A DNA stretch of 41,917 nucleotides from a virus. Position 1 is the stretch's first letter. Each line of letters begins with the position of its first letter. Shown here piece by piece: positions 15,689-36,858 of the stretch. The stretch spans positions 1 through 41,917 of IMG/VR virus record IMGVR_UViG_3300036792_000384; one strand, written 5' to 3'. A program made the position numbers and the translations under genes. The notes below the pieces were generated by a model that saw nothing but the letters and a program-made list of their open reading frames with translations, was not told the origin of the DNA and ran no database searches.

Positions 15689-18600
15689 CTAATCCGCGAT
15701 CACCAGCAGCGGCGCGTTCGTGCCGGTTTCGTTATCGAGATCCGCGCTCAGGAGCGAGCCTCCCGGAAGCGCGAAGAGCGCCGCGCCCGGGATGACGTTC
15801 GATTTCGAGCCTCCCGGAGGCACTCTCATCTGCACCCAGTCGCCGCCGTTGCGGGTCAGGGTGATCCTGATATCGCCCGAGCCCGAGGGCAGCGAGGGAC
15901 CCGGGTAAGCGCCGGCAGCCGATAGCGTCGTCTCGGTCATGGTGTCGGTGTAATCGGCTGTTCCCGCGCTCAGGCTGGTAATGAGCCTCCACACCGCGTT
16001 CGCGACCGGATGGCCGTCCGCGCAGGCGTATATCTCGAGCCCGGTTACCCGAGGGTCGGCGGAGGTGGGCAGCGCCTGCAGGAGCGCGCCGGCGTAAGGG
16101 CCGCTGGGCCCGGTCGAGCCGGTCCACTGCGAAAGGTCCGTCCGGAAGGGCGTCCCCGAGATCGTGCCCGTGAATGCAAAGGCATAGCGGCGGCCCATCG
16201 TCACGCCGAGCGGAGGCGCGAGCAGCACCGTGCTGAAGTTCAGTACCCCGACGCTGGTCCCGTCGTACGGGTTGGTGCTGTGGTTGATCACCGTCATCGA
16301 GCCGCCCTTGCCCGATGAATCCGTGATGCTGATGACCGCGCCCGAGGCCGAGAAGCTGTAGAACTGGCCGATCGTATCGGCTGCCCACCAGGCCGCCATT
16401 GATGAGGCGATCTGCGCCAGCGTGCTCGAGCTGGTGATCAGGTTGGTGTCACAGCGCCATGTGGACTGGTAGCCGCCGATGCGAAGCGCGACCTGCTCCC
16501 ATCCGGAGGCCGCGTGGGTAATAGTGATCGAGCCCGCGCTCGCCGGGCCCGTCAGGACCGGGTCGGCTGAAGGCTGCGGCGCCGCGACCGGTCCGCTGTA
16601 GTCGCCCGTGGTGGTGTCGACGACGGGCTGGGTCTGCGCCCAGCCGGCCTCGAAACTCTGCGGCGCGGCCGAGGCGGACTGGTTCCAGGCGGCGAGAAAT
16701 TCGCCCGCCGGCATGGCGGACATTGGGTAGCTGTACCGCGAGCCGCCGAGCGATCGCATCGCGAAGGGCCATACATCCGAGGCTGTCGACGTCATCAGGG
16801 TTTCGCTCGCCGGCAGGAGCGTGACGACGGAGCTGGTGAGCCCGCGCGAATTGACGAGGGTCGCCTGGATGGCGGCCACGCCGGCGAAGGGCAGCGGTAC
16901 CTGGTAGCCGAAGGTCGCGTTGGCGTTCGAGGCGAAGAACCGCGGCGGGAAATTGATTGTGCGCTGGTCGCACACTATCCGCCGCATGACCGGACAGACG
17001 AGAAAAGGCCCGCCCGCCGCTGGGGTAGTCAGGGGCAGGGTGGTACGCAGCAGGCCCGTGGCGGGGTTATATTCCGCGACAACGCCCTCTTCTCCCGCGC
17101 CCGTAGCGCCGCTCACGAACCCGCCGCCGGGATAGATCGCGAGGCCCGAAGGAACGGTGAACTCGGCCTTCCAGTCGGCGCTGACGGCGATGAAGTTGTT
17201 AGCGATGCGCGGGTGCGCCGCGGCGGTGGTGCCGCACTGCCCGCGCACGACCGTCACAGTCCCGTGGAACTCGTCGACGACGGTGACCGCGGTTACCAGC
17301 ATGATCTCCGCGTCCATCTGGATCCACTCGTTTACGACCGGGTGCGTGCCATAGGTGCCGTAATCGATCGAGGTCACTACCGCGTCCGCCACGCCGTCCG
17401 GAGAGAACATCTCCGTCTGCGTTTCCTCGGGGCAGTAGTAGATATCGGCGCTCGCCGCGACGACCGCCGAAGCGTAATCAACGCACGTGAAATTCTCGAG
17501 CCAGAAAGTACCGTCCTGATCGCTGCGCGCGCTCAGGCCCCAGTCCGCCGGCGGATTCGAAGCTGCCGTCAGGGCGGGCGTGACGGGAACGTCAGCGGGC
17601 TTCGGCCCAACGGTGACGTCGTACGTATCCCAGTTCGTCGTTTTGCCGGTGATGGTGATCGAGAAGTCTTTGTTGAGCTTCCAGCTGGTGACGCGGAATT
17701 CGATGTATGTGGGCGTGGCCGCGGTGGCACCCGTGACCGTCGTGTGCTGCGCGGGATAGTCCGGGCAGTCATCGACCGTCAGCGAGCAGACCATTCCGGG
17801 TCGCACGTTGAGCGCGAGCGCGGTGGTCTTGAAGCTCACCTGCCGCGCGGCCGCAAACTGCGCGGTGTCGATTCCGCCGATCTCCTCGCACAGGCGAACG
17901 CTGGCCAGCCGCCCCGCCTGGTCCTTCGTGGTGACGCCGGCGAGATTCAGCTCGCCGCGAACATACTCAGGGCGGCCGCTCGCGCCGGCGGAAATGATGG
18001 CGTGGTCTTCGTTGTAAATCGAAACGGAGTTGCCCGCGTACCCGAACTCCTCGTCCGCGAAGTAAATCGTGAGGTGGTTGAAGGTGGAAGAGATCGGGTC
18101 GAACTGGACGCTCTGAAAAACAACGTTGCCGTCCTCGAAGGCCTCGACGGCGGAGCTGTTGATTCGCAGATCGATGACGAGCTTGCCGAAGCTGAACGAA
18201 AATACGCCGAGGCAGTTGTTCAGGATTTCCTGCAGCCACTGGCGCAGGGCCTTGGCCTCCTGGAGAACGCCCGTGAATTTGAACTGCGGCGCCGTGCCGG
18301 TCCCGATGATTTTCGAGACGGTGGTATCGCACAGCGTGGCCGCTGCCATCGCCGCGGCGACGTCGAAGTAGCCCTCCTGCACGGCCTTGGGGGCGAAGTA
18401 GATTCCCCTGCCCTTCAGATACGCGTTGACCGCGATCCAAACGGGGTTGTCGCAGTGCGTGATCTGCACGCGGTTGGTAGCTCCGCCGCCGGCGTCCTGC
18501 CAGCTCCAGCACGGCAGCCCGTAGCGCACGGGTACCTGCATGGAGTGCGATTCGACGGTCGATGGCTGCACGCCGGGCGTGTCGCTGCGCCGGATTTCAC

Positions 18601-20383
18601 AGAACGCGGTGCCGCCAGCCTTGCCGGTGCCGAAGCTCTGCGGACCCGAGCCGCCCTGCGAGAGGCTGAACTGGTCGCTGCCGCCGTCCGGATCGTTGTT
18701 CTGCGCCGGGTCGTGCCCGTCGCCGCGGCGCAGGCCGTAAACCCCCCAGGGTGTCGACCCCGAGTAGCGGATGATGTTCGAGCTCTTGGGCCAGCCATGC
18801 GGCGTCTGATTGTCGAGGAAGTACTGGCAGCTGTCCTGGCTGACGGAGGGATAAGAGATGGGCCCCTCGCTGACGATGCCGAGCGCGACGTAGAAGTCGG
18901 ACTCTTCGCGGCCCTCGATAATTTTCGCGTTGACCGGAATCCCCTTGGTCGCGTCGAGCGGGTCGGAAGCGTTCACGACCCAGTCGATAAAAACCTCCGG
19001 TACCACCTGGTCGTAAACCGAGTCCGCAATTTGCGAGGTCGAGTTGATCCTGTCTCGGCCGAAGCCCGCGACGCCGGTGGAATTGTCGAGGATCTGGACG
19101 CTCTGCGGGTTTCCTACGATGCCGCCGAAGTAGGGCGCCATGCCGTGCGAAAGGCAGCCGTTCGCGGTGTCGAAGCCCTTGTCGCAGGAGGTGGGGTCTC
19201 CCCCGCTCCCGGCGCTCGCGTATGGGCAGCCCAGCTCCGCGCGGTTGAAAGCCTTGAGGCACGTGCGCGAGATCTTCCGGATCGGATACGGCAGGTTGAG
19301 CTCGTAGATCCCGTCCGCGCACTGAATGGGAAATTCCGGCCCCGGCTTGACGCTGTACTTGAGCACGTGGCCGCGCCACAGCTGGATCAGCGTCGAGGTG
19401 TTGACGTGGTAGAGCGAGAACTGAACGTCCGCCTTCTTGAGGTCGACGCCGTTGGCGATTTTCGAGATGACGCGGTCCGCGTTGCCGAGGACGAAGCTCG
19501 CCTGATCGGCGGCGCCGCCGATCGACTGCTGGATGCCGTCCCAGTCGAGCAGCCGGGGCTGGTAGGTGACGCCGCCCACGGTGCACAGGCGATCCGAAAT
19601 CGTGATAGCCGGGTACTGCGGAATGATGGGCAGGTTGGCGATCGAGACCGCCGAGACTGTGCTGGTGAGCGGCAGGGTCACTGCCCCGCCCGAGGGCGCG
19701 GCGTCTGCCGACGTCGTGTAGACGACATCATTGAGACTGAATTGCGACCCCGCCGGAATTGTCGCGGTGCCCACGCCCGCGATGGTCACGCTGCTGTCTC
19801 CGATCGCCGCGGCCACGCTGAGGTACGGCGTGCGCGTCCCCCATATGGAGGTTTGCCAGGCGACCGGCTGGATGGTGAGCAGCGGGATTAAGGTTTGCAC
19901 CTGGTCGAGCAGTCCGGTGGCGAGGCCTCCGCTGATGGGCCCGCGCGTGACGGTGCTGGTGATCGAGTACGATGGGCCGCCGCCGGTGGGCACCTCGAGG
20001 AGCGTAATTCCGGTCGAGGTAATACCCGCCGCCACTGCCTCGAGCGAGAAGCTCTGGTCAGCAAATCGACACGTGACTGCTGTCGTCGTGCCGTCGTTAT
20101 TCGGGCGGTTGAACGTGAATTGCGAGAGCGCGCCCGCGCCGGCAGCCCACCAGTTCACAAGCGTCTGCCGCTCGGCCCTGCTCATCGCGGCTTTGCGGAA
20201 CACGTATTTCTTCGTGCCGTCGCCCTGGGTAAAGCGCTGCTCGATCTTCGCGTCGAGGGCGCCGAAGCGGTGCACGGTGACGTTCGGCTCGACGGTGAAC
20301 GAGTACTGGTAGTCGGGCTTCAGCGGGAACGCCGTCGCGTTCACTGAAGGGGCGGGAATCGTAATTGCGCCGAGCTTGCTCAT
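15689..20383 (-). CDS. Giant tail hub / tip protein, DUF2460-DUF2163-hub fusion (1564 aa)
   Basis: The largest gene here. Residues 1-135 resemble distal-tail proteins (PNVTVHRFGALDAKIEQRFT ... NWWAAGAGALSQFTFNRP). Residues about 200-430 match the DUF2163-type hub module (GVTYQPRLLDWDGIQQSIGG; LIQLWRGHVLKYSV; RTCLKAFNRAELGC), including its Cys-rich end. Residues about 690-1000 resemble the central tail-hub region (VIDLRINSSAVEAFEDGNVV). The rest is a chain of beta domains, ending in a carbohydrate-binding-like module (WWAADTIGQFYSFSASGAV). In gene transfer agents and many siphophages the first two modules are separate genes, so this looks like a fusion. No NlpC/P60 peptidase is encoded beside it. 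It caps the tail tube and anchors the fibres. Its ATG overlaps the previous gene. Confidence 0.8.
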   Translation of the reverse strand: MSKLGAITIPAPSVNATAFPLKPDYQYSFTVEPNVTVHRFGALDAKIEQRFTQGDGTKKYVFRKAAMSRAERQTLVNWWAAGAGALSQFTFNRPNNDGTTTAVTCRFADQSFSLEAVAAGITSTGITLLEVPTGGGPSYSITSTVTRGPISGGLATGLLDQVQTLIPLLTIQPVAWQTSIWGTRTPYLSVAAAIGDSSVTIAGVGTATIPAGSQFSLNDVVYTTSADAAPSGGAVTLPLTSTVSAVSIANLPIIPQYPAITISDRLCTVGGVTYQPRLLDWDGIQQSIGGAADQASFVLGNADRVISKIANGVDLKKADVQFSLYHVNTSTLIQLWRGHVLKYSVKPGPEFPIQCADGIYELNLPYPIRKISRTCLKAFNRAELGCPYASAGSGGDPTSCDKGFDTANGCLSHGMAPYFGGIVGNPQSVQILDNSTGVAGFGRDRINSTSQIADSVYDQVVPEVFIDWVVNASDPLDATKGIPVNAKIIEGREESDFYVALGIVSEGPISYPSVSQDSCQYFLDNQTPHGWPKSSNIIRYSGSTPWGVYGLRRGDGHDPAQNNDPDGGSDQFSLSQGGSGPQSFGTGKAGGTAFCEIRRSDTPGVQPSTVESHSMQVPVRYGLPCWSWQDAGGGATNRVQITHCDNPVWIAVNAYLKGRGIYFAPKAVQEGYFDVAAAMAAATLCDTTVSKIIGTGTAPQFKFTGVLQEAKALRQWLQEILNNCLGVFSFSFGKLVIDLRINSSAVEAFEDGNVVFQSVQFDPISSTFNHLTIYFADEEFGYAGNSVSIYNEDHAIISAGASGRPEYVRGELNLAGVTTKDQAGRLASVRLCEEIGGIDTAQFAAARQVSFKTTALALNVRPGMVCSLTVDDCPDYPAQHTTVTGATAATPTYIEFRVTSWKLNKDFSITITGKTTNWDTYDVTVGPKPADVPVTPALTAASNPPADWGLSARSDQDGTFWLENFTCVDYASAVVAASADIYYCPEETQTEMFSPDGVADAVVTSIDYGTYGTHPVVNEWIQMDAEIMLVTAVTVVDEFHGTVTVVRGQCGTTAAAHPRIANNFIAVSADWKAEFTVPSGLAIYPGGGFVSGATGAGEEGVVAEYNPATGLLRTTLPLTTPAAGGPFLVCPVMRRIVCDQRTINFPPRFFASNANATFGYQVPLPFAGVAAIQATLVNSRGLTSSVVTLLPASETLMTSTASDVWPFAMRSLGGSRYSYPMSAMPAGEFLAAWNQSASAAPQSFEAGWAQTQPVVDTTTGDYSGPVAAPQPSADPVLTGPASAGSITITHAASGWEQVALRIGGYQSTWRCDTNLITSSSTLAQIASSMAAWWAADTIGQFYSFSASGAVISITDSSGKGGSMTVINHSTNPYDGTSVGVLNFSTVLLAPPLGVTMGRRYAFAFTGTISGTPFRTDLSQWTGSTGPSGPYAGALLQALPTSADPRVTGLEIYACADGHPVANAVWRLITSLSAGTADYTDTMTETTLSAAGAYPGPSLPSGSGDIRITLTRNGGDWVQMRVPPGGSKSNVIPGAALFALPGGSLLSADLDNETGTNAPLLVIAD

Positions 20384-21469: not shown

Positions 21470-24400
21470 TCACGAAAGCACCGTGGTCGGGCTCGTCATT
21501 GCCGCGTACTGTTCGAGGCGTCCGTAGCTGCCGCTCGAGGCGTCGAGCGTGGCATCGGCTACAGTGCGCGGGTTGCTCTGAATCGCGTCGACGGTCTGGC
21601 CCTTCAGGAATGCCGCGGAGCTGGCCCCGTCGAGGGCGAGTGAAATGGTGCTCGGGTTCTCCCCGTACTTGCCGTATGTCGGCGAATTGATCGTGCCGGC
21701 GAAATTGCTGAGCGAGGAAAGGGAAGACTGGAAGCCGAGCAGCGAGCCGTTGTGATACGTCCCCGCCTGAGTAAGCTGCCCGCCTGAGTAAGCGAAGTTG
21801 GCCGCCTGCGGTCCTACCAGCCCGAATTTCTGCCCCGTCGTTTCCGCGTACAGCCCAAGCATCTGAAGGACGCTCGGATCGTGGAGCGCGCGCGCGATCG
21901 AGCCGCCGTACTGCTGCTTCGCGATATTCGCGATCTGCGTCGCGGTGTCGGTGTTGATGTCGACGTGGTACTGCTCCTTGACGCGCTTCTTCACCTGCTC
22001 CGGCAGCGTCTGCCAGACGGTCATGCGCAGCGCGCCGAGCAGCGCACCCGCGCCCGCGCCGATCGCGGCGCCGATCGGGCCGCCGTATTTGAAGCCGACC
22101 AGCGCGCCGCCAGCGGTATCTTCGCCGAGTCCAACCGCGCCGCCGCGGTGCAGGCCGTCCATCAGGAGCGTGGAGCCGCCGAGCAGCGCCGCCTGGGAGT
22201 GACCGAGCTGCGAGAGGTTCGCGCCGAACGAAGCCGTGTTGCCGGGGTGAAAGGCGCCGTTGAGAAATGTCTGGTCGAATTTCCCGAGCGAGGCTTTGAA
22301 GCCGCCGCCTTTGCCGAACATCCCGAGCAGCCCGCCCAGCGGGCCGCCGCCCTGGCCACCGATACCCGGAATGCCGCGGGGCGCCGCCGCAGCAGCTTCA
22401 GGCGCGGCCGCCTCCGAACTGCTGGGGGCACCGTAGCTGCTCGAGGGCGAGGAATCGCCGCCGCCCCAGGAGCGCCAGTCATTCCAGCCGCCGCCGGTGG
22501 AGACACCGCCTCCGCCGCCTGTCGCGGAACTGTCGCTGCTGTCGCTATAGTCGCGGCTGCTTGGGACGAAGGGCGGGGTAGCGATCGAGGCGGCGCTGCC
22601 GCCGCTGCCGATCGAGATAACCGGCTGCTGGCTGCCGCCGAAGAGGGTCCCGAAAATTCCGCCGCGGCTGCCCCCGGGCTGCACCTGCACCGAACGTCCG
22701 GTAATGCTGCCGGTGATCGCTGCCGCGAGCTGCGAGGTCACGACGTCGCGGAAAGCGCCGAGCAGGGAATTGCGGATCGAATCCCCGAGGGCCTGCCACA
22801 CGCTCTTGCCCTTGCTGAGCGTGTCGTCGAAAAGCTGGTCGAGGTCTTTTTTGACGCCCTCGTAAATAGAGCGCTGCTGATCGACGATGATCGACGTGGT
22901 GGCGCGGCCGCTCTTGAGCTGGATCTCGGCGACGGCGTCGGCGGTCTGCTGCGCCTGCTGCGTGTCCTGATCCTTCTGCCGGGCGCGGAGTGCCGCCTCG
23001 CGGACGTCAGCGTCTGCGCGTGAGGCCTGCCCCTTCTGTACCTGATCCTCGATGGCTTCGATTTCGTGCTTGTACTCGGCGTCCCGGATGGTCTTCGACG
23101 CCTCCGCCGCGCGCTGCAGGTAATCAACTTCGATCGCGAGCTTCTGCTGCTCGACCGCGATTTTCTGCTGGACGGTCTGCGCCTTTACCTCTTCCAGCTG
23201 GCCCAGCTGCTTGTCGCGCGAGGCGCGCAGCTGCTCGGCCTGAAATTCGCTCACCTGCTGCGCGGTCTGAAACTGGTAGTCCTTTGTCTGGTCCTGGAAC
23301 TGGCGGTCTGTGGCGGCGCGCTGCGCGGCGAGCTGGTCGCCGGCGGATTTCTTGGCCGCGGCGGTCTGCTGATCGAGATTCCGGTCCTTCTCGTCATAAC
23401 TGGCATTGATGGCCTGCGCCTGCTGGCGGAATTCCTCAAGCTGGCGCGCCCGCTCCTTCGGATCTGAGGAGAGGCCGTTAGGGCCGACCTTACGCGCGGC
23501 TTCGGTCAGAAGCTGGGTGCGGCTGATATCGTTCTTTTCCTTTTCGAGCGCCGTCTCCTTGTCGAGGGTGTCCCTGTAGATTTTGAGTTTCTGGTCTTCG
23601 AGGTCGCGGACGTTTTCGAGGCCAAGCGCCTCGCGCAATTTCAGCGAATCGTTTTCCGCCTGCTCGGCGCGCTTCAGCCCGTTGACGCGCAGCGTGAGCG
23701 ATTCCTCGTTTGCCTTCACCTCGAGCGCGAGTGTCTGCTCGTGCTCTTTGCGCTGCTCGGTCTGAATTTCCGCCGCCAGCTGCCGCCGGTACTCGGCTTC
23801 CGCCTGCTTATTTGTTACCCGGGAGACGTTGCCGCGGGAGTTGATATGGGTTTCCGAGTTCTGGATTTCCCGCGCGTTCTGCAGCTCCAGCGCGCGGATC
23901 CCGGTAGCGTCCCGCCCCTCGGCCTCATCCGCCGCGTTACGGGCCGTCCTGAGGGCAGCGGCGGCCTCTTTGGGGGCCGCTATAGCCTGCTCCGCGCTGG
24001 CGATCTGATCCTTGAGCCGTTCCACCGCCTGGTTGGCCGCCCTCACAGCGGACGCGGGCGCGGTGGCGTCGCCGATCTTCAGCTTCGCGGTGTCCTCGGC
24101 AACCTGTAAATCCTTCTTCAGCCGATCAAGCCGGAGCTGCGGGAGCTGGTCTTCGAGCGCGGCGTTGCGGTCGGCGGTGATGGTGCCGAAGCCGTTGGCC
24201 CCCAGCCGCCCAGCCTCCTGGTGCAGCCGGTCCTGCAGGCTGTTGCCGACGATGTCGGTGGGCGCGCTGGGACGCCCGAGCAGGCCGCCTGTCGCGCCGC
24301 TCAGAACTGCCTGGAGGATGTTCCCGCTCTGGCCGCCCGTGTGGGCATCGAGCATGTTCTTCAGCCAGAGGGGGCCGCTCACCACGAGGTCGAGCGCCCA

Positions 24401-25678
24401 TACGGCCTTTTCCTTCAGCTTGCTGGTGAGCCGTTCAAATTCGTTTTCGAGGTCGAGGACCTTCTTGCGGTACGCATCGATCGCCTGCAGCTCCTCACCC
24501 GACAGGATGCGGGCGTGCTCCTTCGCGCGCTGGCTGAGCTTGTCGTAACTGTCGATAAGCGGCAGGAACTCTTTCGCGCCGCGGCCGAAGATCTCCTGCG
24601 CGAGTGTGGCGCGCTGGTAATAATCCGGGATTTTCTGGAGAGCGCGGAACGCCTGGTCGACGGCAGCGCCGGCGTCAACCGCGCCGTCCGCCGTGTGGGT
24701 AATCTGAACGCCGAGCACTGACAGGGCTGCGCTCGCTTTGGCGCTTTCGCCGTTGCCCTCCGCCATCGATTCGTTCAGCTGCTTTACCGCCATGCCGAGC
24801 ACGTTGGCGTTGACGCCGGCGTACTCCGCGGCCTTGCCGAATAACTGGGTCTGCTCTGTTGTGAGCCCGGTGCGCGCGGAAAGCTGCTCTATCTGAAGCG
24901 CCTCCTGCGCGAAGCCGTCAGCCTCACTCTTGAGGAATTTGAACGCGGCCCCCAGCGCGAGGACTCCGCCGACTGCCGCGACGCCGAGGCCTCCGAGTTT
25001 GAGGACAGACTGTTCCGCGAGGTCACCGACGGTCTGAAGCGGATTCTGAATGAACTGCTTGATTTTCGACGCCAGCTCCTGGTTGCCGGCCTTGTCCCGC
25101 ATCTGGTCGAAGTGACCGTTGATTTTCTTCTGCAGGTCCTCGGTGAGGCCGAGGTCGGCGAGCGCCTTTTTGCGCTGCGCCTCGATGCGCTGCAGCCCGG
25201 ACATTTCTTTCGCCTGGCTGCCGGCGATGAGGGAATCGACTTTGCGCCGCGCCTGCTCCTCGGCCTGCAGCTGGGCCTGCCGGTATTGTTCGGCGAGTTT
25301 GTCGGCGTCCGGACGTTTCGGGCCGTCGCCTGAGTGCTTATTCTGCTGCTGCTCGCGCGCGTACTGCGCGGCCGAGGTCCGGAGCCTGTCGATCTGGTCT
25401 GCGCCGCGCTGGGCCTCCTGCGCAATTTGATTGAGGCCGCCGGCGGATACGCGCGCCGCGGTGGCAGCGCCCACGAGGTCCTCGCCGAGGGCAGCGACTA
25501 CCTTCTGCGATCGCAGCGCTGCTTCGGAGATTTTGTCGAGGCCGGCCTGTGTCTGATCCCCGGCCGCTTTCGCCGTGGCTCCGATTTTGCCGAGTTCCTG
25601 ATTCGTCCGCTTTGCGCTCGCCTCCGCTTTTGAGGAGTCGAACTCCGCGACGATTCGCATTTTGCCGTTGTCTGCCAT
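21470..25678 (-). CDS. Tape measure protein (1402 aa)
   Basis: Very long, helix-rich protein starting MADNGKMRIVAEFDSSKAEA, with extended coiled coils through the middle (for example AEQYRQAQLQAEEQARRK, KAQTVQQKIAVEQQKLAIEV). A hydrophobic stretch near residues 225-250 (LGGLGVAAVGGVLALGAAFK) and the glycine/alanine-rich C-terminal part (YGGPIGAAIGAGAGALLGAL) are typical of tape measures that cross the host membrane. It sets tail length; at about 1.5 angstrom per residue of helix, a tail near 200 nm would follow. Its gene follows the frameshifted tail chaperones directly, as in other siphophages. The start has GGGCGGGTAACC in front. Confidence 0.93.
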   Translation of the reverse strand: MADNGKMRIVAEFDSSKAEASAKRTNQELGKIGATAKAAGDQTQAGLDKISEAALRSQKVVAALGEDLVGAATAARVSAGGLNQIAQEAQRGADQIDRLRTSAAQYAREQQQNKHSGDGPKRPDADKLAEQYRQAQLQAEEQARRKVDSLIAGSQAKEMSGLQRIEAQRKKALADLGLTEDLQKKINGHFDQMRDKAGNQELASKIKQFIQNPLQTVGDLAEQSVLKLGGLGVAAVGGVLALGAAFKFLKSEADGFAQEALQIEQLSARTGLTTEQTQLFGKAAEYAGVNANVLGMAVKQLNESMAEGNGESAKASAALSVLGVQITHTADGAVDAGAAVDQAFRALQKIPDYYQRATLAQEIFGRGAKEFLPLIDSYDKLSQRAKEHARILSGEELQAIDAYRKKVLDLENEFERLTSKLKEKAVWALDLVVSGPLWLKNMLDAHTGGQSGNILQAVLSGATGGLLGRPSAPTDIVGNSLQDRLHQEAGRLGANGFGTITADRNAALEDQLPQLRLDRLKKDLQVAEDTAKLKIGDATAPASAVRAANQAVERLKDQIASAEQAIAAPKEAAAALRTARNAADEAEGRDATGIRALELQNAREIQNSETHINSRGNVSRVTNKQAEAEYRRQLAAEIQTEQRKEHEQTLALEVKANEESLTLRVNGLKRAEQAENDSLKLREALGLENVRDLEDQKLKIYRDTLDKETALEKEKNDISRTQLLTEAARKVGPNGLSSDPKERARQLEEFRQQAQAINASYDEKDRNLDQQTAAAKKSAGDQLAAQRAATDRQFQDQTKDYQFQTAQQVSEFQAEQLRASRDKQLGQLEEVKAQTVQQKIAVEQQKLAIEVDYLQRAAEASKTIRDAEYKHEIEAIEDQVQKGQASRADADVREAALRARQKDQDTQQAQQTADAVAEIQLKSGRATTSIIVDQQRSIYEGVKKDLDQLFDDTLSKGKSVWQALGDSIRNSLLGAFRDVVTSQLAAAITGSITGRSVQVQPGGSRGGIFGTLFGGSQQPVISIGSGGSAASIATPPFVPSSRDYSDSSDSSATGGGGGVSTGGGWNDWRSWGGGDSSPSSSYGAPSSSEAAAPEAAAAAPRGIPGIGGQGGGPLGGLLGMFGKGGGFKASLGKFDQTFLNGAFHPGNTASFGANLSQLGHSQAALLGGSTLLMDGLHRGGAVGLGEDTAGGALVGFKYGGPIGAAIGAGAGALLGALRMTVWQTLPEQVKKRVKEQYHVDINTDTATQIANIAKQQYGGSIARALHDPSVLQMLGLYAETTGQKFGLVGPQAANFAYSGGQLTQAGTYHNGSLLGFQSSLSSLSNFAGTINSPTYGKYGENPSTISLALDGASSAAFLKGQTVDAIQSNPRTVADATLDASSGSYGRLEQYAAMTSPTTVLS

Positions 25679-34690: not shown

Positions 34691-35869
34691 ATGAAGTTCA
34701 CCTGCGCCACGTGCACCTCCGCTCGCGAAATGAAAACCGATCGCGCGCCGGCGGGCTGGAAGCGGCTCGGCGAGAAAACGTACTGCAGCGACTGCTGGAG
34801 GCAGATGTTCGTGCTGCGCGCCGTCACAATTCCGGTGGCGTCGCCGCTCGACCTGTCGTGGGATGAATTTGGCAAAGCCCTGCGCGCGCAGTGGGCGCTT
34901 GTCACCGAGGCCTGTAACTGGATGGTGACGGAGCTGTTCGTGCGCGACGATAAATCGCGCGACTCCGGCAAGCTGAAACCGATGCCGCGCGTATATCTGT
35001 ATCCCGAGACGCGGCGCATGTTTCCCCTGCTACCCTCGACTTCGTGCGCCGGCCTCGAGCAGGCGGTGCAGAAAAAGTACCGCGCGCGGCGCTACGAGGT
35101 CGTGTGGACGCACAAGGCCAGCCTGCCGACGTATCGGTACCCGACGCCCTTTCCGGTTCCAAACCAGGCGTGGAGCGTCGAGCTCGAGGACAAGGCCGCG
35201 ATTGTGAGCGCGCGCATTGGTGAGGAGCGGATCCGCTTTCGCCTGCGCGGTGGCCACCAGTTCCGCCGGCAGATGGCTGCCGTCCACCAGATCGTTTCGG
35301 GCGAAGCCCAGCAGGGGCAGCTGGATATTTACCGGCAGGGCACAAGCGTGATGTGCAAGATGGTTGCGTGGCTGCCACGCGGGGCAGGGAAGGCCGCTGA
35401 CGCCGAGGGAACGCTATTCGTGCGCACCGACGCCGACGCCCTTATCGTGGCGCTCAACGCGAAGGATGACCGCCTGTGGGTGTACCACGGCGATCAGGTA
35501 AAACGCTGGAGCGCCGAGCACAGAAAAATGCTGGACCGGCTCTCGGATGATTCGAAGGCCGAGCACCGCCCGGTACCGCCGTTCTCGAAACGCCGGCAGG
35601 CCGCGGCCACGAAATATTCGGACCGCATGAAGTCCGCCACGCACCAGATCTCGGCGATGATAGCGGGCTACGCGCGCCGGAGAAAATTCGCGCGGGTCCA
35701 GTACGACGACTCGCTGCAGAGCTTCTGTCCGGGTTTTCCGTGGTTTTCGCTGCGGGAGAAAATCGCGACGAAGTGCGACGAGGCGGGCATCGAGTTTCAC
35801 CACGTTGCAGCTGCGAGCGGTGAGGTGAAAGAAAATTCCAACGCGCCGCTCGGGAGCGAGGTAAATTAG
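34691..35869 (+). CDS. TnpB/Cas12-superfamily protein with degenerate RuvC motif (392 aa)
   Basis: Residues 1-40 carry a zinc ribbon (CATC at 5-8, CSDC at 32-35). Residues 45-110 hold the helix AQWALVTEACNWMVTELFV, like the W-x-N helices of TnpB/Cas12. Residues 145-235 are beta-rich (LPTYRYPTPFPVPNQAWSVE), as in the wedge domain. The RuvC-like part follows: FVRTDADALIVALNAKDDRL (RuvC-I-like, D247 or D249), bridge helix region, KFARVQYDDSLQSF (RuvC-II-like, D339/D340 where Glu is usual), and FPWFSLREKIATKCDEAGIE, the segment after RuvC-II in TnpB. The zinc finger normally next is missing. The C-terminus ENSNAPLGSEVN resembles the RuvC-III D-x-N-A-A motif with Asp replaced by Asn. A nuclease-impaired RNA-guided DNA binder is the likely function. 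A repeat array follows 113 bases downstream. Ribosome-binding site GGTGGG. Confidence 0.75.
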   Translation: MKFTCATCTSAREMKTDRAPAGWKRLGEKTYCSDCWRQMFVLRAVTIPVASPLDLSWDEFGKALRAQWALVTEACNWMVTELFVRDDKSRDSGKLKPMPRVYLYPETRRMFPLLPSTSCAGLEQAVQKKYRARRYEVVWTHKASLPTYRYPTPFPVPNQAWSVELEDKAAIVSARIGEERIRFRLRGGHQFRRQMAAVHQIVSGEAQQGQLDIYRQGTSVMCKMVAWLPRGAGKAADAEGTLFVRTDADALIVALNAKDDRLWVYHGDQVKRWSAEHRKMLDRLSDDSKAEHRPVPPFSKRRQAAATKYSDRMKSATHQISAMIAGYARRRKFARVQYDDSLQSFCPGFPWFSLREKIATKCDEAGIEFHHVAAASGEVKENSNAPLGSEVN

Positions 35870-35942
35870 GCATTTAGCGCCACCGACAGGCGCAGGGTGC
35901 ACAAGGCGCGGGAACGCTTGCCGATCCGCCGCTCGCACCGAA

Positions 35943-35982
35943 GCTGCTAAGGGTTCGGGATATCTGCCGCAAGGCAGCAGCC
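35943..35982 (+). ncRNA. Structured leader before the repeat array (possible guide scaffold)
   Basis: CTGCC (35964-35968) pairs with GGCAG (35973-35977) around a GCAA tetraloop of the stable GNRA class. GCTGCT (35943-35948) can pair with AGCAGC (35976-35981) as a longer alternative. It lies between the effector stop and the first repeat, so it may be part of a guide-RNA scaffold, a tracrRNA-like piece, or only a leader. The 113 bases from 35870 to 35982 otherwise hold no gene. Confidence 0.4.
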
Positions 35983-36842
35983 CTGAAGGCGCTCATTGAC
36001 ATGCGATGCCGCTTCCGGGAGAGCCGAAGCGACGTATTGGTACAGAGTCCGCTGGCTGAAGGCGCTCATTGACATGCGATGCCGCTCCGGGAGTATAGAA
36101 CCGGTGACGACACGCCGCTCCGGGGGGTCTACCAACCCGATGACATGCGATGCCGCTCCGGATCCTCCAACATTGACATGCGATGCCGCTCCGGGGACCT
36201 GATGGCTGGCCGGTATTCAAAGGCTGGCGCCTGAAGGCGCTCATTGACATGCGATGCCGCTCCGGGTGGAGGATCGATCACCGATGCCGCTCCGGGAATC
36301 TATCTGCCTCGGGCGTAGTAATAGTGGCCGGCAGTTGCGCTCGGGCTAAGCTGAGACGCTCGGCAATTGCATCCGTGCCTCTGGCGCGCTCGGGCAAAGC
36401 GTCACGGCTGTACGGCGCTCCGGAAGGGGTCTATCGCGCTCCGGGCACTACGAGCGCGAGATGGCGCTTCGGTAGGCAGCGTTGCCCAGTTTGGGAGCGC
36501 TCGGGAGAAGCAAGTCCGCGCTCTTGCGGCGAGCGCTTCGGGTCCGGCCCTCCATACAACGCTCCGGCAGGTCTAGCGTTGGGGCCTCGGTCGATGTCAC
36601 GGCGCTCCGGCAGTATCCGCCTCTGGCGTTTCGGGGAAGCGCGTCCGGGAAGAGGCTTCGGGTCTATAGTGGTGTCCCTGTGCCGCTTCGGACTGAACTG
36701 CGGAAGTCTTGGAGCGCTTCGGCTAAGGCGTATGTTGCCAGCGCTTCGGATTGGCCCGCCGTGCCGCCTCGGGTAAATGAAAGGCGCCTCGGCTTCCGGT
36801 CGATTGTACCCGCCTCGGCATGAACTTGGAAAGCGCCTCGGG
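35983..36842 (+). CRISPR. CRISPR-like array of about 28 short decaying repeats
   Basis: Three copies of a 36-37 base repeat, which starts CTGAAGGCGCTCATTGAC and ends ATGCGATGCCGCTCCGGG, lie at 35983-36019, 36056-36091 and about 36231-36266. Four shorter copies keep only its 3' part (cores ending at 36124, 36161, 36195 and 36296). From 36306 on, about 21 units keep just GCGCTTCGG, GCGCTCCGG or GCGCCTCGG, with ends at for example 36423, 36445, 36472, 36542, 36610, 36662, 36691, 36722, 36749, 36773, 36792, 36818, 36842. Unit spacing is 17-38 bases, mean near 27, and the sequences between are unlike each other, 10-28 bases long. Repeats are best conserved beside the effector gene and decay away from it, as in CRISPR arrays with a leader end. 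The 28 units cover the whole gap up to the MuF gene. No reading frame here looks real. Confidence 0.7.
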
Positions 36843-36858
36843 TAATGCGAGTGGTGAG

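What the first reader, a model, noticed from the sequence alone, without database searches (positions are those of the whole stretch)
34691..35869. The effector looks nuclease-impaired: Asn in place of RuvC-III Asp and no target-nucleic-acid zinc finger
In TnpB/Cas12 the segment after RuvC-II leads into a CxxC...CxxC finger and then D-x-N-A-A. Here FPWFSLREKIATKCDEAGIE runs straight to HHVAAASGEVK and ENSNAPLG, so the finger is missing and Asp is Asn (N382). RuvC-II has Asp-Asp instead of Glu. This resembles nuclease-dead members (TldR, Cas12k, Cas12m) that silence rather than cut. A phage using guides to repress host or rival genes would be notable.
Basis: partly seen in the sequence, partly recalled or inferred. 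Interest (0 to 1): 0.8.

Follow-up and report, generated by a model that had tools for sequence, protein, structure and literature searches.

The report
Phage nuclease-dead Cas12f with guide arrays
A phage carries a shrunken Cas12f CRISPR protein that has lost its DNA-cutting site, together with its own helper RNA and a long array of unusually short guides, so it most likely finds and silences chosen genes instead of cutting them.

Summary
The gene is real (34691-35869, 392 aa) and is a Cas12f relative: PADLOC Cas12f E=2e-13, and its AlphaFold model matches AsCas12f1 at Z 24. The residue argument does not. N382 is not a mutated RuvC-III Asp; it lies in a disordered tail, and the whole RuvC-III/TNB segment is missing in the 13 members whose C-terminus is held. 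RuvC-I Asp is Arg245 here and never Asp in the family; RuvC-II Glu is Asp.

Fourteen members form one clade: phages, many with an integrase gene, plus two Acidobacteriota chromosomal copies. Those with enough downstream sequence have a covarying tracr-like RNA followed by CRISPR-type repeats. Seven carry 36-nt repeats. Three, the window included, carry arrays of 23-52 units of about 25 nt, keeping only the 3' half of the repeat. In all three that half pairs best with its own tracr-linked 5' half.

Two phage spacers match their own genome perfectly. One chromosomal guide matches a paralogue of the adjacent TonB receptor for 15 nt but mismatches the adjacent receptor. Best reading: RNA-guided silencing. 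No target of the window's own guides was found; nothing was tested experimentally.

The parts
34691..35869 (+). Nuclease-dead Cas12f-like effector, 392 aa
34703..34795 (+). Added N-terminal zinc-finger-like segment (Cys 5, 8, 32, 35), invariant in all 14 members
   Evidence: the Cas12f1 alignment starts only at model residue about 40
35423..35425 (+). Codon of R245, which occupies the RuvC-I catalytic Asp position
   Evidence: hhalign against active TnpB/Cas12f-like proteins, end of strand 241-245, family column R/H/T/K/E
35705..35707 (+). Codon of D339, at the RuvC-II Glu position
   Evidence: HMMER alignments to AsCas12f1
35813..35866 (+). Disordered C-terminal tail (residues 375-392, includes N382) in place of TNB finger and RuvC-III
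   Evidence: pLDDT < 50; profiles end before it
35877..35982 (+). tracr-like RNA: stem 1 at 35877-35893, anti-repeat TTCGGG at 35954-35959
   Evidence: covariation over 13 RNA sequences from 12 loci
35983..36018 (+). First full 36-nt repeat; its 5' end pairs with the tracr anti-repeat, and 35985-35992 (GAAGGCGC) is the proposed trans-pairing strand for the short handles
36056..36091 (+). Second full 36-nt repeat
36139..36195 (+). Two 5'-truncated repeats (36139-36161 and 36172-36195)
36231..36266 (+). Third full 36-nt repeat
36267..36850 (+). Short-unit array: about 23 handles of GCGCYTCGG type, median unit 25 nt
   Evidence: 23 handles against 5.1 +/- 1.9 in shuffles

Best explanation
The protein is a nuclease-dead, phage-borne Cas12f. 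It binds a tracr-like RNA encoded directly downstream and guides from the adjacent array, and it silences target genes by occupying DNA (a transcription roadblock) rather than cutting. In this phage, as in two relatives, most repeats are reduced to an 8-12-nt 3' handle, which pairs in trans with the 5' half-repeat joined to the tracr RNA and carries a guide of about 12-16 nt. Shown by sequence and computation: homology to Cas12f, loss of catalytic residues and of the TNB/RuvC-III segment across the clade, covarying RNA helices, array architecture, handle complementarity. Inferred: expression, processing, DNA binding, silencing, and the identity of targets.
For: Cas12f homology: PADLOC 2.3e-13, PDB AsCas12f1 9.7e-10, Foldseek 1.7e-18, VIA Z 24.4. 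Dead site. One clade against active TnpB/Cas12f-like proteins, support 100/100. Purifying selection. RNA: 15 of 18 pairs with double changes, 93% of cells paired against 61% in shuffles and 30-44% when slid. Arrays of 36-nt repeats with 35-40-nt spacers in L001, L002, L003, L015, L025, L031 and L032. Short-unit arrays in the window, L024 and L026 with different handles but the same unit of 24-26.5 nt. Handles pair best with their own tracr-linked half-repeat, 0 of 200 shuffles as low, all three phages diagonal-dominant. Self-matching spacers of 38/38 and 35/35 nt. Chromosomal copy L017: the guide's first 15 nt match a paralogue of the adjacent TonB-dependent receptor exactly, with 2 seed mismatches to the adjacent receptor. 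Precedent: TldR guides as short as 6 nt repress (PMC13418256).
Against: No target of the window's own guides was found. The lone fold of the window's tracr region is no more stable than shuffles, so structure rests on comparison only. The arms counted were picked by hand. The full repeats of the window have a weaker internal stem than those of relatives. L024 handle variants fit the pairing model less well than those of L026 and the window. Self-matching spacers were found in only two phages. L008's single guide has no full-length match in its genome.
Confidence: 0.76

Rival explanations
1. The cassette is decaying: an eroded Cas12f pseudogene with a degenerating CRISPR array.
For: The catalytic site and C-terminus are gone; window repeats are shortened and variable.
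Against: dN/dS about 0.23-0.24; the same truncation across a 14-member clade; short units with the same spacing in three phages with different handles, each matched to its own half-repeat; strong RNA covariation.
Confidence: 0.07
2. It is an RNA-guided activator or recruiter (like dCas12f with a sigma factor, or Cas12k with transposition proteins) that works through a partner protein.
For: The closest dead structures include dCas12f-gRNA 9n9c/9n9m (Z 22.1) and Cas12k.
Against: No protein-coding neighbour is shared across the loci apart from pairs of phages.
Confidence: 0.12
3. The array RNAs act by antisense pairing to mRNA or as protection or decoy against host CRISPR, with the effector as an RNA chaperone.
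For: Two self-matching spacers are antisense to the mRNA of phage genes.
Against: The effector keeps the Cas12f fold over 329 aligned residues; one partial self match is in the sense direction.
Confidence: 0.08
4. It is an active nuclease using a different or trans-supplied active site.
For: Acidic residues remain at RuvC-II (YDD).
Against: RuvC-I Asp is Arg, and RuvC-III with TNB is absent across the clade; spacers match the phage's own genome in two relatives.
Confidence: 0.02

Closest known systems
CRISPR-Cas12f (type V-F / V-U3), e.g. AsCas12f1
   Same: WED/REC plus RuvC fold, tracr-like RNA, 36-nt repeats, about 36-nt spacers
   Different: No D-E-D triad, no TNB finger or RuvC-III; extra N-terminal finger; phage-borne; in three phages most repeats are reduced to a short 3' handle
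TldR, TnpB-like nuclease-dead repressors (PMC13418256, citing Wiegand 2024)
   Same: Nuclease-dead, phage-borne, short guides suffice; the chromosomal copy L017 has one guide matching a paralogue of its neighbour
   Different: Belongs with Cas12f, with tracr-like RNA and multi-guide arrays; no fliC partner seen; the L017 match is in coding sequence, not at a promoter
'dCas14' of a huge phage (PMC7162821)
   Same: Phage-encoded Cas12f-type effector lacking catalysis, proposed to repress
   Different: That one lacks one catalytic residue and its spacer targets a host tRNA synthetase gene; here the C-terminal part of the active site is deleted clade-wide, and short-unit arrays are present
dCas12f-sigma factor RNA-guided transcription (structures 9n9c, 9n9m; the functional account is from memory)
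   Same: Dead Cas12f (Z 22.1)
   Different: No conserved partner gene seen beside this family
Cas12m (V-M)
   Same: Binds DNA and silences without cutting (PMC10442227, PMC11013384)
   Different: Larger (516-604 residues in the listed chains) and a lower match, Z 11.6-12.8 against 24

Membership tests
Cas12f (type V-F) | Cas12f WED/REC and RuvC fold homology | tested here: met
Cas12f (type V-F) | RuvC D-E-D catalytic triad | tested here: not met
   R245, D339 and no RuvC-III
Cas12f (type V-F) | TNB zinc finger between RuvC-II and RuvC-III | tested here: not met
   profile matches stop before it; absent in relatives
Cas12f (type V-F) | tracrRNA pairing with the repeat | tested here: met
   anti-repeat:repeat helix 97% paired, 5 of 6 pairs with double changes (hand-picked arms)
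Cas12f (type V-F) | CRISPR array with full-length repeats | tested here: met
   seven relatives; the window keeps 3 full repeats, the rest being short units
Cas12f (type V-F) | Works as an asymmetric dimer on one guide RNA | not testable with these tools
   no complex prediction made
TldR | Derived from IS605-type TnpB with a single fused omega RNA, no tracr and no CRISPR repeats | tested here: not met
   tracr-like RNA and repeat arrays present; best match is Cas12f rather than TnpB
TldR | Inactivated RuvC | tested here: met
TldR | Guide directed at a host relative of the associated gene | tested here: inconclusive
   seen in chromosomal relative L017 only; nothing found for the window
dCas12f-sigma factor systems | Conserved sigma-factor gene next to dCas12f | tested here: inconclusive
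   no neighbour shared across the phage loci, but sigma models were not searched one by one
Cas12m (V-M) | About 500-600-aa effector with a non-canonical but complete RuvC | tested here: not met
   392 aa with RuvC-III absent
TIGR-Tas | Nop-domain (box C/D-like) effector | tested here: not met
   the effector has no Pfam Nop match and is Cas12f-like

The most novel reading that the evidence does not exclude
Phages have turned Cas12f into a multiplex gene silencer. With cutting no longer needed, the CRISPR repeat was split: the 5' half stays once on the tracr RNA, and dozens of 3' half-repeat handles each carry a guide of about 12-16 nt and anneal to it in trans, giving an exceptionally compact guide array. 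Similar single-guide copies were taken into bacterial chromosomes to switch between paralogous surface receptors.
Probability: 0.45. Interest if true: 0.92.

Novelty: new variant of a known kind. Interest (0 to 1): 0.78.

Why it matters
Naturally dead Cas12 regulators are a young field, and most known cases carry a single guide or ordinary arrays. A phage family whose dead Cas12f is paired with tens of very short guides would show how losing cleavage frees the guide from its usual length, give a very small natural multiplex silencer, and make it directly testable what temperate phages silence in their hosts or rivals.

Tried and rejected
(1) N382 as the RuvC-III residue: rejected, since it is disordered and not conserved. 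(2) Window guides against own genome, IMG/VR (one exact spacer), INPHARED and 396 Acidobacteriota genomes: nothing reliable. The best genome hit (G042, 4.9e-6) spans handles plus an indel inside a gene that reads like glycine dehydrogenase, and was set aside. (3) Relatives' 36-nt spacers against INPHARED: none (the query held the spacers of L001, L002, L003, L025 and L031 and the first five of L032, not those of L015 or the window). (4) G406 spacer-1 pattern in other viral contigs: two hits, but identity outside the forced pattern is low and I read it as chance. (5) L002 spacer back-translated: found only itself. (6) L015 array against its own MAG: no convincing protospacer. (7) L008 guide: 13-nt matches are probably common membrane-helix codons; no full-length target. 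(8) Rfam: no match. (9) Single-sequence fold of the tracr region: z 0.85, uninformative. (10) Promoter scan: nothing on the coding strand. (11) Conserved partner gene: none. (12) One origin of the short-unit arrays: weakly supported only (22/85).

Full report
WHAT IS THERE. The ORF at 34691-35869 (+) encodes 392 aa. Pfam has only a weak sub-threshold match (DUF3253, E 0.002, below its cut-off), PHROGs nothing significant, INPHARED nothing. PADLOC matches Cas12f (2.3e-13) and Cas12u3 (6.8e-12); the Cas12f match covers residues 41-375 and profile positions 3-346 of 399. A profile of the family finds AsCas12f1 in the PDB (9.7e-10). The AlphaFold2 model from a 12-sequence alignment has mean pLDDT 85 and pTM 0.63. 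Its best solved matches are Cas12f (Foldseek 1.7e-18; VIA Z 24.4, 329 aligned residues, rmsd 6.4), well above TnpB (16.3), Cas12k (16.1) and Cas12m (12.8). The high rmsd over the full length reflects domain shifts or model error.

THE ACTIVE SITE. RuvC-I: profile alignment with active TnpB/Cas12f-like proteins puts the catalytic Asp of VGVDMG on Arg245, at the end of strand 241-245 of the model. Across 14 members that column reads R, R, H, R, R, R, T, K, R, K, R, R, E, R. RuvC-II: the Glu of IQMED aligns with D339 of YDD; L003 has lost even that. RuvC-III and the TNB finger: both PADLOC and PDB profile matches stop where the finger begins, and all relatives with complete C-termini end there too. 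Residues 375-392, with N382, are unstructured. A Cys 5/8/32/35 finger has been added in front. dN/dS of about 0.23-0.24 argues against a pseudogene, though dS is near saturation.

THE FAMILY. Relatives came from IMG/VR, one species-level genome set and a draw of 396 Acidobacteriota genomes. Fourteen form one clade apart from active TnpB/Cas12f-like proteins (100/100). The two chromosomal copies do not group together in the tree. Six of 11 phage records carry a tyrosine integrase; the window's record is not one of them. The window shows terminase, portal and major head protein genes on the minus strand; the effector and array sit between them on the plus strand, like an added cassette. No protein-coding neighbour is shared across the loci, apart from pairs of phages.

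THE RNA. The loci with enough downstream sequence have the same plan after the stop codon or, in L031, further downstream: a GCC-ACCGnnA-GGC hairpin, a variable region, GGGATA plus a hairpin, then a repeat. I picked three helices by eye (stem 1; anti-repeat with the 5' end of the repeat; the repeat's own hairpin) and counted them over 13 sequences: 15 of 18 pairs show changes on both sides, 93% of cells pair against 61% in shuffles and 30-44% in slid controls, and the covariation score is 0.89 against 0.22. Hand-picking inflates the percentage paired, but less easily the number of double changes. The window's region alone folds no better than shuffles, so the evidence is comparative.

THE ARRAYS. 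Seven relatives have ordinary CRISPR-type arrays: 36-37-nt repeats, 35-40-nt spacers, 2-8 repeats. The window, L024 and L026 differ: after few or no full repeats comes a run of handles only (window GCGCYTCGG; L024 GATCGKTCGG; L026 GGTCACYTCGGG) with median unit length 25, 24 and 26.5 nt and 23, 52 and 41 handles, against 5-7 expected in shuffles. The handle is the 3' strand of the repeat hairpin. The missing 5' strand persists once, joined to the tracr region (in L026 a few more full repeats survive in and after the array). In all three phages handles pair with their own 5' strand better than shuffled handles (0 of 200) and better than with the other phages' strands: -10.6, -12.3 and -7.4 kcal/mol. 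In L026 most handle variants are wobble-compatible (C/T facing G, A/G facing U; read by eye). I infer that short guides work through a trans duplex. A tree gives only weak support for a single origin of these arrays.

TARGETS. In the L025 phage a 38-nt spacer matches its own genome perfectly at the start of an ORF that reads like a DNA methyltransferase; in the L032 phage a 35-nt spacer matches its own genome just upstream of the effector, and a second matches 25 of 26 nt. Such self matches would be suicidal for a nuclease. In chromosomal copy L017 the single guide, from its first base, matches 15 nt of a TonB-dependent receptor paralogue 8.6 kb away at the NIWLPNH motif, while the adjacent receptor (IWLPHH) differs at two seed positions. 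Of 5,921 control 15-mers none matched the paralogue. This is like the logic reported for TldR, whose guides work at 6 nt (PMC13418256). For the window's guides I found no reliable target.

JUDGEMENT. The protein is a nuclease-dead Cas12f derivative (about 0.95). That it binds the adjacent RNA is likely (about 0.85), that it silences rather than recruits is the best guess (about 0.75), and that the short handles act in trans is a fair inference (about 0.5). It is not a member of TldR by descent, though it may work like one, and it fails two defining features of active Cas12f. A phage 'dCas14' has been proposed before (PMC7162821) and dead type V subtypes are known (PMC12669027), so the kind is known. 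The clade-wide deletion, the short-unit arrays and the single-guide chromosomal copies are, as far as the papers searched here show, new; the library holds only open-licence papers.

Noticed in passing
L008:5998-7380: Chromosomal dCas12f homologue in a Bryobacteraceae MAG, 6 nt after the stop of an RND efflux pump gene, followed by the tracr-like RNA, one repeat and one guide, then what reads like a tRNA gene; looks like an independent domestication.
   Followed up: partly
L017:8423-9760: Chromosomal dCas12f homologue directly upstream of a TonB-dependent receptor, with one repeat and one guide that matches a receptor paralogue for 15 nt.
   Followed up: yes
L026:6186-8440: The tracr-like region is duplicated (80% over 110 nt), flanking a ~2 kb stretch that holds the short-unit array.
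   Followed up: no
L002:9455-9714: Spacers 2 and 4 of this array share 36 identical nt, and the sequence reads as KKPPFKSAALV; no target found.
   Followed up: partly
L015 and L016 (genome G351): One Acidobacteriota MAG bin holds two different contigs with members of this family; L016 is also an IMG/VR record.
   Followed up: no
window 15689-20383 and 21470-25678 (-): Two very long ORFs (1564 and 1402 aa) without any Pfam match at E 0.01, near the tail tube gene.
   Followed up: no
BFVD A0A1P8DIN8: Best viral structural neighbour (467 aa, E 8.7e-16, TM 0.61), an unnamed viral protein that may be another phage Cas12f.
   Followed up: no
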